A stretch of DNA of 42,403 nucleotides from Oscillospiraceae bacterium Zagget12 (GTDB lineage Bacteria; Bacillota; Clostridia; UBA1381), in contig MSHM01000008.1 in NCBI GenBank assembly GCA_001941225.1, forward strand, positions 281-42,683, written 5' to 3'. Below are positions 13,368 through 42,370 of this stretch, piece by piece. How positions within the stretch are numbered: the stretch's first letter is position 1; every line of letters begins with the position of its first letter. The notes below the pieces were generated by a model that saw only the letters and a program-made list of their open reading frames with translations, had not been told where the DNA came from and made no database searches. The translations under genes and the position numbers were made by a program.

Positions 13368-14138
13368 ATGTCAGATTGGAATTCGGAGCAATATTTAAAA
13401 TTCAAAACTCAAAGGACTATGCCGGCTGTTGATTTGGCAAGCAGAGTGAATATTGATGCCAAAAACATACTCGATTTGGGCTGCGGTCCAGGAAACAGCA
13501 CGGCGGTGCTGCGCCGCCGTTGTCCCAATGCGCGTATATTGGGCATTGACAGCTCACCCGATATGATACAAAAAGCAAGGGAAACCCACGGCGATTTGGA
13601 TTTTATGCTTTTCGACGCAAGCGGCGGCATTGACGGTTTGGACGATACATATGACGTTATATTTTCAAACGCGTGTATTCAATGGATTCCCAATCACAAT
13701 GCGCTGATAAAAAGTATGATTAATAAGCTCACCGACGGCGGTATGATTGCGGTGCAGGTTCCTATGAACGGCAATTCGCCGCTGTTCCGCGGAATATCAC
13801 GGATTGCCTCCGAGCCGAAATGGGGCTTTGACAAGGTTAAACTTGCGCATAATGAAATACTGTCGCCCGAGGAATATTACAATATACTTGCCGAAAATTC
13901 AAGCGGTTTCGACATATGGGAAACATCGTATTATCATAGTATGCCGTCACATCGGTCGCTGCTTGAATGGGTTAAGAGTACAAGATTAAAACCGTATCTG
14001 GAAAATTTAAACGGCGAGAACGAAAAAGCCGCCTTTGAACGTGAGGTGCTTGACTGCGCAATCGCTGAATATCCCGTTCAAAATAACGGCGAGATTATTT
14101 TCAAATTTAAAAGACTGTTCTTTACCGCGGTAAAATAA
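13368..14138 (+). CDS. tam: SAM-dependent methyltransferase, trans-aconitate 2-methyltransferase-like
   Basis: 256 residues. The class I SAM-binding motif NILDLGCGPGNST is at 33-45, the acidic residue after strand 2 is in GIDSSPDM (about 54-61), and SNACIQWIPNH (about 100-110) is typical of Tam enzymes, as are the N-terminal WNSEQYLKF and the SLLEWVKST segment. Tam methylates trans-aconitate, a spontaneous by-product of aconitase chemistry that inhibits the TCA cycle. An earlier in-frame ATG at 13338 falls inside the icd terminator, so the ATG six bases after GGAGG was chosen. Its place after icd fits the proposed role; without assay, another small carboxylate could be the substrate. Confidence 0.78.
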   Translation: MSDWNSEQYLKFKTQRTMPAVDLASRVNIDAKNILDLGCGPGNSTAVLRRRCPNARILGIDSSPDMIQKARETHGDLDFMLFDASGGIDGLDDTYDVIFSNACIQWIPNHNALIKSMINKLTDGGMIAVQVPMNGNSPLFRGISRIASEPKWGFDKVKLAHNEILSPEEYYNILAENSSGFDIWETSYYHSMPSHRSLLEWVKSTRLKPYLENLNGENEKAAFEREVLDCAIAEYPVQNNGEIIFKFKRLFFTAVK

Positions 14139-14140
14139 AT

Positions 14141-14172
14141 AGAGGCTCATCTGAACGAGCCTCTTTAATTTT
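14141..14172 (+). terminator. intrinsic terminator after the methyltransferase gene
   Basis: AGAGGCTC (14141-14148), eight-base loop, GAGCCTCT (14157-14164), then TTAATTTT. It begins two bases after the stop codon. Confidence 0.88.
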
Positions 14173-14204
14173 GCTTGTTTTGTCTGAAAAGTCGATTTAT
14201 GCGT

Positions 14205-14223
14205 TTTACATTTACCTTACAAA
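14205..14223 (+). repeat. conserved box upstream of TA-like module 1
   Basis: TTTACATTTACCTTACAAA lies 31 bases before the -35 start of the plus-strand promoter. The same box, with 17 of 19 identities, lies 32 bases before the -35 start of module 2 (41963-41981). It could be a regulator site or simply common ancestry of the two modules. Confidence 0.65.
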
Positions 14224-14235
14224 ATACCACAAAAA

Positions 14236-14264
14236 TTGACATTGTTTGCTCTTTATGATATACT
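14236..14264 (+). promoter_or_regulatory. promoter of the small-peptide mRNA, module 1
   Basis: TTGACA (14236-14241), 17-base spacer, TATACT (14259-14264). The predicted transcript begins near 14271 with a hairpin of GAAAA and TTTTC (14272-14288), a common 5' feature of stable toxin mRNAs. Confidence 0.8.
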
Positions 14265-14318
14265 CTTATCGGAAAATGGAGCTTTTTCGTCCTGACGCCA
14301 CCGCAAGGGGGTGTTTTT

Positions 14319-14363
14319 ATGAGCGAATTAACAATTAATTTAATTTTGATTTTGCTTCAATAA
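14319..14363 (+). CDS. 14-residue hydrophobic peptide, candidate type I toxin
   Basis: ATG follows GGGGGTG by five bases. The product MSELTINLILILLQ is a polar start and a short hydrophobic stretch. A GGGGC-AAC-GCCCC hairpin follows the stop at once. Upstream is a strong promoter; downstream a strong promoter on the other strand fires back toward it. Type I toxins are usually 20-60 residues with a full TM helix, so this one is very short, and the frame could instead be a remnant or a leader. The evidence for it is the promoter, RBS and the paired module at 42165, not similarity to a known protein. Confidence 0.5.
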   Translation: MSELTINLILILLQ

Positions 14364-14407
14364 GGGGCAACGCCCCCGTCATTCAACGTTAGTTATACTC
14401 GTTTGGA

Positions 14408-14505
14408 TAAAAAAATAATTACCTATCTCGCAAATAGGTAATTATTTGGTAGAAATCGTAATTTCTTTCTACCTTTCTAACCGCAGGACGATAAGTCCCT
14501 TTTCT
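14408..14505 (-). ncRNA. candidate antisense small RNA of module 1
   Basis: A predicted RNA of about 98 nt from the minus-strand promoter at 14512-14540 to a perfect terminator hairpin: a 13-bp stem (14414-14426 with 14434-14446, AATAATTACCTAT and its complement), then seven T. Before it lies a second hairpin, GGTAGAAA..TTTCTACC (about 14449-14474). It runs against the 3' half of the plus-strand toxin-like transcript, as RatA does against txpA. No coding potential is visible. Confidence 0.62.
14409..14446 (-). terminator. terminator of the antisense RNA
   Basis: A perfect 13-bp inverted repeat (14414-14426/14434-14446) with a seven-base loop, followed on the minus strand by a T-run (complement of 14409-14415). 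Confidence 0.85.
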
Positions 14506-14511
14506 TTTTAT

Positions 14512-14540
14512 ATATTACCACATTCAAGAGAATATGTCAA
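14512..14540 (-). promoter_or_regulatory. strong minus-strand promoter of the antisense RNA
   Basis: TTGACA (complement of 14535-14540), 17-base spacer, TAATAT (complement of 14512-14517). The TGTGG before the -10 is the same as in the proximal rRNA promoter, suggesting strong constitutive expression. No gene lies downstream for 370 bases on this strand, which argues for a non-coding product. Confidence 0.82.
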
Positions 14541-14562
14541 GCAAATCATATGCTTTTCTTAC

Positions 14563-14598
14563 AAAAAGAGCTGCCGCATAAAAGCAGGCAGCTCTTTT
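14563..14598 (-). terminator. terminator of the ribosomal protein cluster (after rplQ)
   Basis: AAAAGAGCTGCC (14564-14575) pairs with GGCAGCTCTTTT (14587-14598) around an 11-base loop, with T-runs on both sides. It ends the minus-strand rplQ transcript and could also stop the plus-strand mRNA of the toxin-like module. Confidence 0.9.
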
Positions 14599-14609
14599 AA
14601 GCTTTATTA

Positions 14610-14954
14610 TCAATCTACAAGCTCAAGAATCGCCATAGGAGCGCTGTCACCGCGGCGCGGACCTGTCTGGTAAATTCTTGTGTAACCGCCGTTTCTCTCA
14701 GCGTACTTCGGAGCTATTTCAGAGAAAACCTTTGTTACAACGTCTTCCTTTGTGATAAACTCCAATGCCTGACGACGAGAATGAAGTGTGTTTGTTTTGC
14801 CAAGAGTAATCATCTTCTCAGCCATACTCTGAGTTTCTTTTGCTCTTGTCAAAGTAGTTTCAATTCTACCCGTTTCCAAAAAACTTGTTACAAGATTACG
14901 CAGCATAGCTTTTCTTTGGTCTGTTGGGCGATTTAACTTTCTTGTTCCCGGCAT
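14610..14954 (-). CDS. rplQ: 50S ribosomal protein L17
   Basis: 114 residues, the usual bacterial length. The N-terminus [20 protein letters not shown] and the [18 protein letters not shown] segment are diagnostic. L17 sits near the exit tunnel of the large subunit. It is the last gene of the cluster, 15 bases after rpoA, as in most bacteria, and is followed by the strong hairpin at 14563. Here the C-terminus ends in MAILELVD. Confidence 0.97.
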
Positions 14955-30935: not shown

Positions 30936-31137
30936 CAAAGTTAGCCAAATTCGCCGCATACCTGTCCCGTTCGCCGCATAAAATGCCGCGCCTAAACACA
31001 GATATACATTGACTGCCGCCCGGTTTCTTGAATCGGACTCACTCCGCGGAAAAACCGGCTTTTTTCAGCCGCAACCTCCCGCATCATCGCTTGTCAGTAC
31101 CTATATGTGCATTACGCGCACAAGTCACAACATACCC

Positions 31138-41962: not shown

Positions 41963-41981
41963 TTTACGTTTGCCTTACAAA
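41963..41981 (+). repeat. conserved box upstream of TA-like module 2
   Basis: TTTACGTTTGCCTTACAAA, 17 of 19 identical to the box of module 1 (14205-14223) and at nearly the same distance from the -35. Confidence 0.65.
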
Positions 41982-41994
41982 TAATCGACACAAG

Positions 41995-42023
41995 TTGACA
42001 TAATACGACACTTATGGTAGAAT
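41995..42023 (+). promoter_or_regulatory. promoter of the small-peptide mRNA, module 2
   Basis: TTGACA (41995-42000), 17-base spacer, TAGAAT (42018-42023). CGACAC (42006-42011) and GTGTCG (42028-42033) make an inverted repeat around the -10, a possible operator. The transcript should begin near 42029 with TGTCGGG-GAAA-CCCGACA (42029-42046), a seven-bp hairpin with a GNRA tetraloop. Confidence 0.78.
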
Positions 42024-42164
42024 ATACGTGTCGGGGAAACCCGACATACATAAGGGCAGACTGAAAACGATGAAAATCGGACGGTTAGCCGCCACATTAC
42101 TTATCGACCAAGGAGCTTTTGGCTGCGCCTTCGGGCAAAAATCCAATAGATAGCTCGGTAGGAG

Positions 42165-42260
42165 GTGATTACGACGGCAAAGCGATTCGCGATAAAAGCA
42201 TTAGTTATAATACTTTTGGTAGTCATTGTTATGATTATATTCGCTGAAACAGCAAAATAA
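42165..42260 (+). CDS. 31-residue hydrophobic peptide, candidate type I toxin
   Basis: An open frame of GTG plus 30 codons, stop at 42258: a basic start (TTAKRFAIKA), a 15-residue hydrophobic helix (LVIILLVVIVMIIF) and a short AETAK tail. This is the classic form of small membrane toxins (TxpA/BsrG or 'holin-like' peptides). The start is unclear: AGGAGGTGATTACGACGG places the RBS over the GTG, with no ATG behind it; an ACG eight bases after GGAGG would be an unusual start. The copy may therefore be decayed or use a rare start. The stop codon lies inside the terminator hairpin of the opposing RNA. Confidence 0.5.
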   Translation: MITTAKRFAIKALVIILLVVIVMIIFAETAK

Positions 42261-42335
42261 CCGCTCCAATGCAGAGGTCGCGGTTATTTTGTAAATAACA
42301 CTTGCGGCTAACCGTTTGAGGTTTGCCCTTTTTCT
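42250..42335 (-). ncRNA. candidate antisense small RNA of module 2
   Basis: A predicted RNA of about 85 nt from the minus-strand promoter at 42342-42370 to the hairpin at 42254-42290. It covers the last codons and 3' UTR of the peptide mRNA. Its 5' part, ACGGTTAGCCGC, is identical to a segment of the mRNA 5' UTR (about 42082-42092), so the mRNA 3' end is complementary both to this RNA and to its own 5' UTR. Confidence 0.58.
42254..42290 (-). terminator. hairpin ending the antisense RNA of module 2
   Basis: AAAATAACCGC (42254-42264), 15-base loop, GCGGTTATTTT (42280-42290). On both strands it ends in four T, so it is a modest bidirectional terminator. Confidence 0.65.
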
Positions 42336-42341
42336 ATTATT

Positions 42342-42370
42342 ATATTATCACAGATGTTGTGAAATGTCAA
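42342..42370 (-). promoter_or_regulatory. minus-strand promoter of the antisense RNA, module 2
   Basis: TTGACA (complement of 42365-42370), 17-base spacer, TAATAT (complement of 42342-42347): the same hexamers and spacing as in module 1. No protein gene follows on this strand until the repeat region. Confidence 0.78.

What the first reader, a model, noticed from the sequence alone, without database searches (positions are those of the whole stretch)
14205..14598. Compact convergent unit resembling a type I toxin-antitoxin module (module 1)
Between two housekeeping blocks sits a self-contained unit. On the plus strand: promoter, 5' hairpin, RBS, a 14-codon hydrophobic peptide and a GC hairpin. 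On the minus strand: a promoter with rRNA-like hexamers and TGTGG, driving an RNA of about 98 nt that ends in a perfect 13-bp terminator. The two transcripts overlap at their 3' ends, the geometry of txpA/RatA. The mRNA region CAGGACG (14484-14490) is complementary to CGTCCTG in its own 5' UTR (14288-14294), so a 5'-3' fold could hold back translation, as in known type I toxins. The peptide matches no toxin I know and is unusually short.
Basis: partly seen in the sequence, partly recalled or inferred. Interest (0 to 1): 0.75.

Follow-up and report, generated by a model that had tools for sequence, protein, structure and literature searches.

The report
Broken copy of small-toxin antisense pair
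This spot looks like one member of an unnamed, many-copy family of tiny membrane-toxin genes faced by antisense RNAs in uncultured gut bacteria; in this copy a small repeat hairpin has cut the toxin gene short, and many toxin promoters of the family carry what look like phosphate-starvation switches.

Summary
In detail: two strong promoters face each other, and a terminator-ended antisense RNA overlaps the 3' end of a small-ORF mRNA. Relatives change the interpretation. A covariance model of the minus-strand RNA finds 92 places in 25 of 70 genomes of the family. Of 93 matches examined, 90 carry an antisense promoter and 81 a short hydrophobic ORF, usually ending Lys-Lys, with a coding substitution pattern. 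So it is a type I toxin-antitoxin family with TxpA/RatA-like geometry, without a significant match in Pfam, NCBIfam, PHROGs or Rfam for the members tested. The 14-codon peptide is not the native toxin: a 37-bp repeat hairpin (14356-14392) interrupts a frame that is a whole 20 codons in a congener's orthologous locus. The antisense RNA is intact. mRNA 5'-3' complementarity is real and covaries, but folding does not show that it hides the ribosome site; a local hairpin does. Unexpected: a quarter to a third of toxin promoters, this one included, carry 11-bp direct repeats like Pho boxes; the same box precedes some PstS-type and Na/Pi-transporter genes of the clade and is nearly absent from antisense promoters. 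No expression data exist.

The parts
14205..14221 (+). Pho-box-like 11-bp direct repeat TTTACA-N5-CTTACA upstream of the toxin promoter
   Evidence: The pattern occurs only here and at 41963 in the window, both strands; 11-bp pairs in 23 of 65 non-redundant toxin promoters (at least three of these, L055, L197, L199, look like chance pairs by eye), 0 of 68 antisense promoters
14236..14264 (+). sigma-70 promoter of the toxin mRNA (TTGACA-17-TATACT, TG extended)
   Evidence: conserved in the congener's orthologous locus
14271..14318 (+). 5' UTR (start inferred from the -10) with CGTCCTG (14288-14294) complementary to the mRNA 3' end, and an SD-hiding hairpin CACC..GGTG (14299-14313)
   Evidence: covarying 5'-3' complementarity in 81 units; folding of relatives, not of the window
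14319..14363 (+). truncated toxin ORF, 14 codons plus stop; the last codons and stop lie in the insert
14356..14392 (+). 37-bp hairpin insert (short form of a repeat family), interrupts the toxin frame; ends ambiguous by about 2 bp
   Evidence: alignment with the congener's intact orthologue; 5 pattern copies in this genome, this one included, 39 in G021 and 23 in G034; a like short form in L253
14393..14418 (+). remnant of the 3' part of the toxin frame, overlapping the antisense terminator region
   Evidence: in intact relatives the Lys-Lys-stop codons lie in the same A run
14409..14505 (-). antisense RNA (antitoxin), about 100 nt; 5' stem-loop, 8-bp hairpin GGTAGAAA..TTTCTACC, terminator stem 14413-14447 (start inferred from the -10)
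   Evidence: CM match 14409-14511, 103 bits with R2; covariation
14512..14540 (-). antisense promoter TTGACA-17-TAATAT with TG
   Evidence: like promoter (10 or more of 12) at 90 of 93 CM matches vs 3.6% of random positions in the same loci
14486..14509 (+). terminator-like hairpin of the mRNA (GGAC-GATAA-GTCC + T-rich run); its 5' arm can instead pair with the 5' UTR
   Evidence: sequence; like arrangement in relatives by eye; function inferred
14564..14598 (.). 12-bp perfect inverted repeat, perhaps a bidirectional terminator shared with rplQ
   Evidence: function inferred

Best explanation
The locus is a decayed member of a multicopy, unnamed type I toxin-antitoxin family. In intact members a strong promoter makes an mRNA of about 200-265 nt for a membrane peptide of some 18-32 residues, usually with a Lys-Lys end; in the window's subgroup its Shine-Dalgarno is held in a local hairpin, and its 5' leader pairs with its own 3' end. 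[quoted passage not shown] the expected outcome is RNase III cleavage or blocked translation. In the window copy a 37-bp hairpin element has inserted into the toxin frame, ending it after 14 codons, while antisense RNA, promoters and leader are intact: toxin lost, antitoxin kept. Shown: architecture, conservation, covariation, interruption, repeat nature of the insert. Inferred: transcription, toxicity of intact members, antisense action, Pho control.
For: Orthologous intact locus in a congener, 84% identical, between the same neighbours, with an uninterrupted 20-codon frame. CM search: 25 of 70 family genomes, 92 places, up to 8 each. 81 of 93 matches have a hydrophobic SD-preceded ORF with a basic end at the terminator vs 2.7% of random positions; 90 of 93 have the antisense promoter, which the model does not contain. 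Coding substitution pattern: pN/pS 0.32 in frame vs 0.69 and 3.30 out of frame. Covarying antisense helices and covarying mRNA 5'-3' pairing. Insert is a repeat.
Against: No transcript or toxicity data. The genomes searched are unnamed and many are incomplete; the insertion is seen in one assembly of 77% completeness. 45 of 70 family genomes have no match. 12 of 93 matches fail the ORF test, and some antisense RNAs stand alone in tandem (L045). The 93 come from sources chosen because they held hits. The 292 pairs behind pN/pS are not independent. No family of type I toxins in three libraries matched significantly (best E 0.19).
Confidence: 0.85

Rival explanations
1. The 14-codon peptide is itself a working mini-toxin; the insert merely reshaped its end and the unit still works.
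For: Promoter, leader, SD and start are intact and the native codons kept before the insert hold part of the hydrophobic stretch.
Against: It lacks the Lys-Lys end found in 76 of 80 relatives' peptides and part of the hydrophobic stretch; the smallest relatives passing the filter have 17 (doubtful) and 18 residues. The insert also adds a GC-rich hairpin to the mRNA.
Confidence: 0.08
2. The minus-strand RNA is now an orphan antitoxin kept by selection because it silences, in trans, sibling toxin mRNAs in the same or incoming genomes (compatible with the best explanation).
For: The antisense RNA and its promoter are undamaged; other genomes hold antisense copies without a whole toxin frame (L045 tandem copies, L173, L189, L192). 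In the congener G006 a second unit has a closely similar antisense RNA (L044).
Against: No other CM match at E<=0.01 in this genome (one weak overlapping + strand match at E 0.095), though the assembly is incomplete; recent decay would look the same.
Confidence: 0.3
3. The plus-strand ORF is an attenuator or leader peptide, or chance, and the minus-strand RNA is an independent small RNA.
For: Short ORF; some minus-strand copies have no ORF.
Against: 81 of 93 matches keep a hydrophobic ORF ending at the antisense terminator with a coding substitution pattern; here the next gene, rplQ, is on the other strand.
Confidence: 0.04

Closest known systems
TxpA/RatA and BsrG/SR4 (Bacillus subtilis type I systems)
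   Same: Some members here begin M-x-V-Y-[DE]-x-L, which recalls the start of TxpA/BsrG toxins (recalled, not tested).
   Different: Peptides here have 17-32 residues, median 21; B. subtilis toxins 28 to 60 (passage of PMC6563280). No significant Pfam, NCBIfam, PHROGs or Rfam match for those tested. Here sense and antisense leaders are alike, so the mRNA's own ends are complementary.
Clostridioides difficile type I modules (CD2517.1-RCd8 and others)
   Same: Class Clostridia, convergent overlap, N-terminal membrane segment, lysine-rich end (passages of PMC6563280).
   Different: C. difficile toxins are 34-59 residues and most modules lie in prophage regions; here shorter, and between two chromosomal genes in the window. 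Direct sequence comparison not made.
par/Fst of Enterococcus and the Fst/Ldr family
   Same: Convergent RNAs toward a shared terminator region; repeats at both ends (recalled).
   Different: In par the end repeats make the two RNAs complementary at their 5' ends (recalled); here they are inverted, so the two 5' ends are alike and the mRNA's own ends are complementary.
AapA/IsoA of Helicobacter pylori
   Same: Multicopy type I family with an mRNA 5'-3' long-distance interaction (passages of PMC6733600).
   Different: There the long-distance interaction hides the SD; here folding shows a local hairpin hiding it in one subgroup and no effect of the 3' tail.

Membership tests
Type I toxin-antitoxin system | Antisense RNA gene overlapping the toxin mRNA | tested here: met
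   By sequence: CM match in the window and promoter at 90 of 93 places; transcription itself not tested
Type I toxin-antitoxin system | Small (<60 aa) hydrophobic protein with charged C-terminus | tested here: met
   Met by relatives: 81 of 93, lengths 17-32. NOT met by the window copy, which is cut to 14 codons without the basic end
Type I toxin-antitoxin system | Toxin overexpression harms the cell and the RNA counters it | not testable with these tools
   needs expression assays
TxpA/RatA (TxpA/BsrG group) | Convergent orientation with 3' overlap | tested here: met
   window and relatives
TxpA/RatA (TxpA/BsrG group) | Sequence homology of toxin or antitoxin | tested here: inconclusive
   No significant Pfam/NCBIfam/PHROGs hit for 8 intact relatives' peptides in each library (best E 0.53, 0.19, 0.39), no Rfam hit at gathering level to a type I antitoxin in 12 relatives' loci or the window; direct comparison with TxpA or BsrG was not made and peptides this short rarely score
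par/Fst | Direct repeats making the two RNAs' 5' ends complementary (recalled) | tested here: not met
   the repeats are inverted: 14284-14294 and 14484-14494
AapA/IsoA-like 5'-3' control | Long-distance pairing hides the SD | tested here: not met
   predicted SD accessibility full 0.392 vs tail-less 0.373, p = 0.38, 75 mRNAs; pairing itself present
Pho regulon member (toxin promoter) | 11-nt direct repeat units at the promoter | tested here: met
   window met; 17 of 71 toxin upstream regions vs 6 of 402 other long ORFs; definition from passages of PMC4415409. 54 of 71 do not match the strict pattern
Pho regulon member (toxin promoter) | Induction by phosphate limitation through PhoB/PhoP | not testable with these tools
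   8 PhoB-model matches in this genome, none over the PhoB cut-off, so the regulator is not identified

The most novel reading that the evidence does not exclude
A clade-wide, multicopy type I toxin family of which many toxin promoters, but hardly any antitoxin promoter, are wired to a Pho-type response regulator, so that phosphate starvation tips the toxin-antitoxin balance; the window's own locus and a second small-peptide unit at 41963-42370 are two examples in this window, and decayed members survive as orphan antitoxins.
Probability: 0.35. Interest if true: 0.75.

Novelty: new variant of a known kind. Interest (0 to 1): 0.58.

Why it matters
It adds a type I family with very short toxins, genes of about 20 codons that annotation easily misses, in little-studied gut bacteria. 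It makes two questions testable: why genomes keep several such pairs (the promoters point to phosphate limitation), and what happens when the toxin dies first, since here and at some nine other places the antisense RNA outlives a whole toxin frame.

Tried and rejected
Rfam on the window, also at E up to 10 in 14100-14650: 19 sub-threshold matches, judged chance. Reading all BLASTN hits as relatives (35 of 121 genomes, own included): many hits are only to the repeat insert (query 171-211), to the Pho-like box (about query 25-62) or chance, so distribution was taken from the covariance model. The first MAFFT alignment A1 misaligned helix 2, so a five-row alignment A3 seeded model R1 and 25 of its matches seeded R2. 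A 5'-3' fold controlling SD access: tested, no effect; the antisense-bound state gave 0.367 (p = 0.05), also no opening. G094 outside the family: neither promoter nor ORF, rejected as false. The one Y1 transposase found in this genome: its neighbourhood (first 900 bases printed) did not show the repeat by eye, so the mobilising enzyme is unknown. PstS check: a first script mishandled minus-strand loci and was redone. The Pho-like pattern alone is a weak signal: 40 hits vs 25 for the reversed control in 7 genomes, and it also precedes other genes, for example SLH-like proteins in G007 and G010 (by eye); the case rests on where it lies. 11-bp pairs peak at 30, but 17 lie at 10 bp and 15 at 21 bp, the -35 being offset.

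Literature: seven full-text searches; listings only, except passages of PMC6563280 (outline), PMC6733600 and PMC4415409. None of the listed titles or abstract starts described this family or a Pho-controlled type I system; the library lacks most subscription papers and no wider search was made.

Full report
What is there. Between a plus-strand methyltransferase ORF ending at 14138 and rplQ on the minus strand (14610-14954; Pfam for both) lie two facing promoters: plus TTGACA-17-TATACT (14236-14264) and minus TTGACA-17-TAATAT (14540-14512), scoring 11 and 10 of 12, both with TG; their inferred start sites, 14271 and 14505, are 234 bp apart. The plus RNA would carry a 48-nt leader, an ATG at 14319 and 14 codons; the minus RNA would end at a 14-bp perfect stem with a T run.

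Relatives. BLASTN of 14180-14600 against 120 relatives found an orthologous copy in a congener, G006:C82, 84% identical. Its ORF is an uninterrupted 20 codons; relative to it the window carries 37 extra bases at 14356-14392. L063 (Oscillospiraceae bacterium HAN068), whose RplQ is identical, has no unit behind rplQ. Of all 80 rplQ loci fetched (the best 80 of 526, up to 3 kb on each side), only L064 matches the antisense model at E<=0.01. At this place the unit is thus a rare, lineage-specific insertion.

Family. A covariance model of the minus RNA (R2, 25 sequences) found 92 matches at E<=0.01 in 25 of 70 genomes of the family, among them 15 of 16 genomes of the genus, up to 8 per genome. In the order run 25 of 95 genomes matched: 24 in the family (G013 was lost under the stricter filter) and 1 of 25 outside, which proved false on inspection. 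In the class run 9 of 391 matched at E<=0.001: 7 of the 15 family members listed and 2 others; both of the latter (L250, L251) show promoter, SD, short hydrophobic ORF and terminator by eye, so rarer cousins exist beyond the family. I gathered 80 sources, chosen because they held hits, and scored 93 matches: 90 have an antisense promoter of at least 10 of 12 consensus bases (3.6% of random positions), and 81 have an ORF with SD, hydrophobic fraction of at least 0.55 and a basic residue in the last four (2.7% of random positions in the same loci, true units included). The 12 others are the window, three antisense copies in L045, the units L173, L189 and L192, in which by eye the 5' part is gone, L161 with a replaced 5' part, L196 with a probable A-run frameshift, L215 without a recognisable frame, L205, whose hydrophobic ORF merely lacks a basic end, and the false match L174. 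Over 292 non-independent pairs the frame evolves with pN/pS 0.32, against 0.69 and 3.30 in the other frames; 80 peptides, 62 distinct, 17-32 residues, median 21, 76 ending Lys-Lys. Sense promoters score 10.1 on average vs 6.8 shuffled over 79 of the 81 units.

RNA structure. The two antisense helices covary: 13 of 20 pairs change on both sides, 93.3% of cells paired vs 78.2% shuffled; the inner hairpin (82.7% paired) is weaker than the terminator (99.1%) (the alignment was fitted to the model, which favours it). The mRNA leader and the mRNA 3' end are complementary by different sequences in different units (mean longest run 8.40 nt in 81 units, range 5-13; shuffled 5.48; other units' tails 5.97). 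Because the antisense RNA is the complement of the 3' end, the two RNAs begin with like leader sequences. In 60 of 75 folded mRNAs the mean pairing probability of the leader with the 3' end exceeds 0.2, but SD accessibility does not depend on the tail (0.392 vs 0.373, p = 0.38); in units with G-rich SDs like the window's the SD is mostly hidden by a hairpin just upstream, in the other subgroup (GAAAGG) it is mostly open. The role of 5'-3' pairing is therefore open; end protection or competition with the antisense RNA are guesses.

The insert. TTCAATAAGGGG..CC..TCATTCAA occurs five times in this genome, this copy included; with a slightly different pattern 4 times here, 39 in G021, 23 in G034, 2 in G053, 3 in G120 and 0 in G020. 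Of the copies printed most continue into a roughly 150-bp three-hairpin element that ends ..TTTTAGTTAT; the window and L253 hold a short form that jumps to TTAGTTAT, and L263 fits neither. It looks like a non-autonomous IS200/IS605-type element (inference; no transposase was linked).

Promoter boxes. Many toxin promoters carry TTTACA-like units 11 bp apart running into the -35. Over 65 non-redundant promoters, pairs 11 bp apart number 30, against 1.04 in shuffles (maximum 4 in 100 runs) and 0 in 68 antisense promoters; 23 of 65 promoters have at least one pair. With a stricter pattern 17 of 71 toxin upstream regions match, 1 of 76 antisense ones, and 6 of 402 other long ORFs of the fetched loci (p = 8e-11). 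Among 26 PBP_like_2 (PstS-type) loci read, of 35 places in 17 of 21 genomes (second halves of the same genes and places without a locus left out), 6 match, all six among the shorter lipoprotein-like ones (p = 2e-5). They include this genome's PstS-like gene, which is followed by a Na/Pi cotransporter (L247, Pfam); a Na/Pi cotransporter with PhoU domain in G009 also has a box. PHO boxes are defined as 11-nt direct repeat units (passage of PMC4415409). In the whole window the strict pattern occurs twice on both strands: here (14205) and at 41963, before a second small-peptide unit. Against: 20 of 26 PstS-type loci and 54 of 71 toxin regions lack the strict pattern, a related pattern is only modestly above its reversed control genome-wide (40 vs 25 in 7 genomes), and none of this genome's PhoB-like regulators passes the PhoB cut-off. 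Pho control is a prediction.

How it most likely works. Intact members: a tiny membrane peptide whose mRNA is silenced by a facing antisense RNA through a long 3' duplex, with a local SD hairpin as second lock in one subgroup, and induction perhaps by a Pho-type regulator. Window copy: the toxin frame is broken, the antitoxin remains. What is shown is sequence, conservation and covariation; expression, toxicity and regulation are inferred.

Noticed in passing
window 41963-42370: A second unit of the same general design: Pho-like box (41963-41979), promoter, a GTG-started ORF of 31 codons (42165-42260) ending ..ETAK, a hairpin, and a facing TTGACA/TAATAT-like promoter (42342-42370, by eye). Not matched by model R2; Pfam none. 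The same leader start occurs at the end of contig C38 (L008) and a like ORF in G006 next to a module-1 unit (L046).
   Followed up: partly
L045 (G006:C137) 939-1397: One toxin gene followed by tandem copies of the antisense RNA, promoters included, without further toxin frames; a run of N lies inside.
   Followed up: partly
L253-L272; L002, L007: Roughly 150-bp three-hairpin repeat family (39 copies in G021), ends TTTTAGTTAT; mobilising enzyme not found.
   Followed up: partly
window 31014-31095 (-): S10-Clostridia ribosomal protein leader, Rfam RF03136, 51 bits.
   Followed up: no
L235 (G000:C23:101373): Pho-like boxes upstream of a short ORF and a DinJ/RelB-like ORF by eye; a like site in G006:C31.
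   Followed up: no
L231, L239 (G007, G010): Pho-like box before SLH-like surface protein ORFs (by eye).
   Followed up: no
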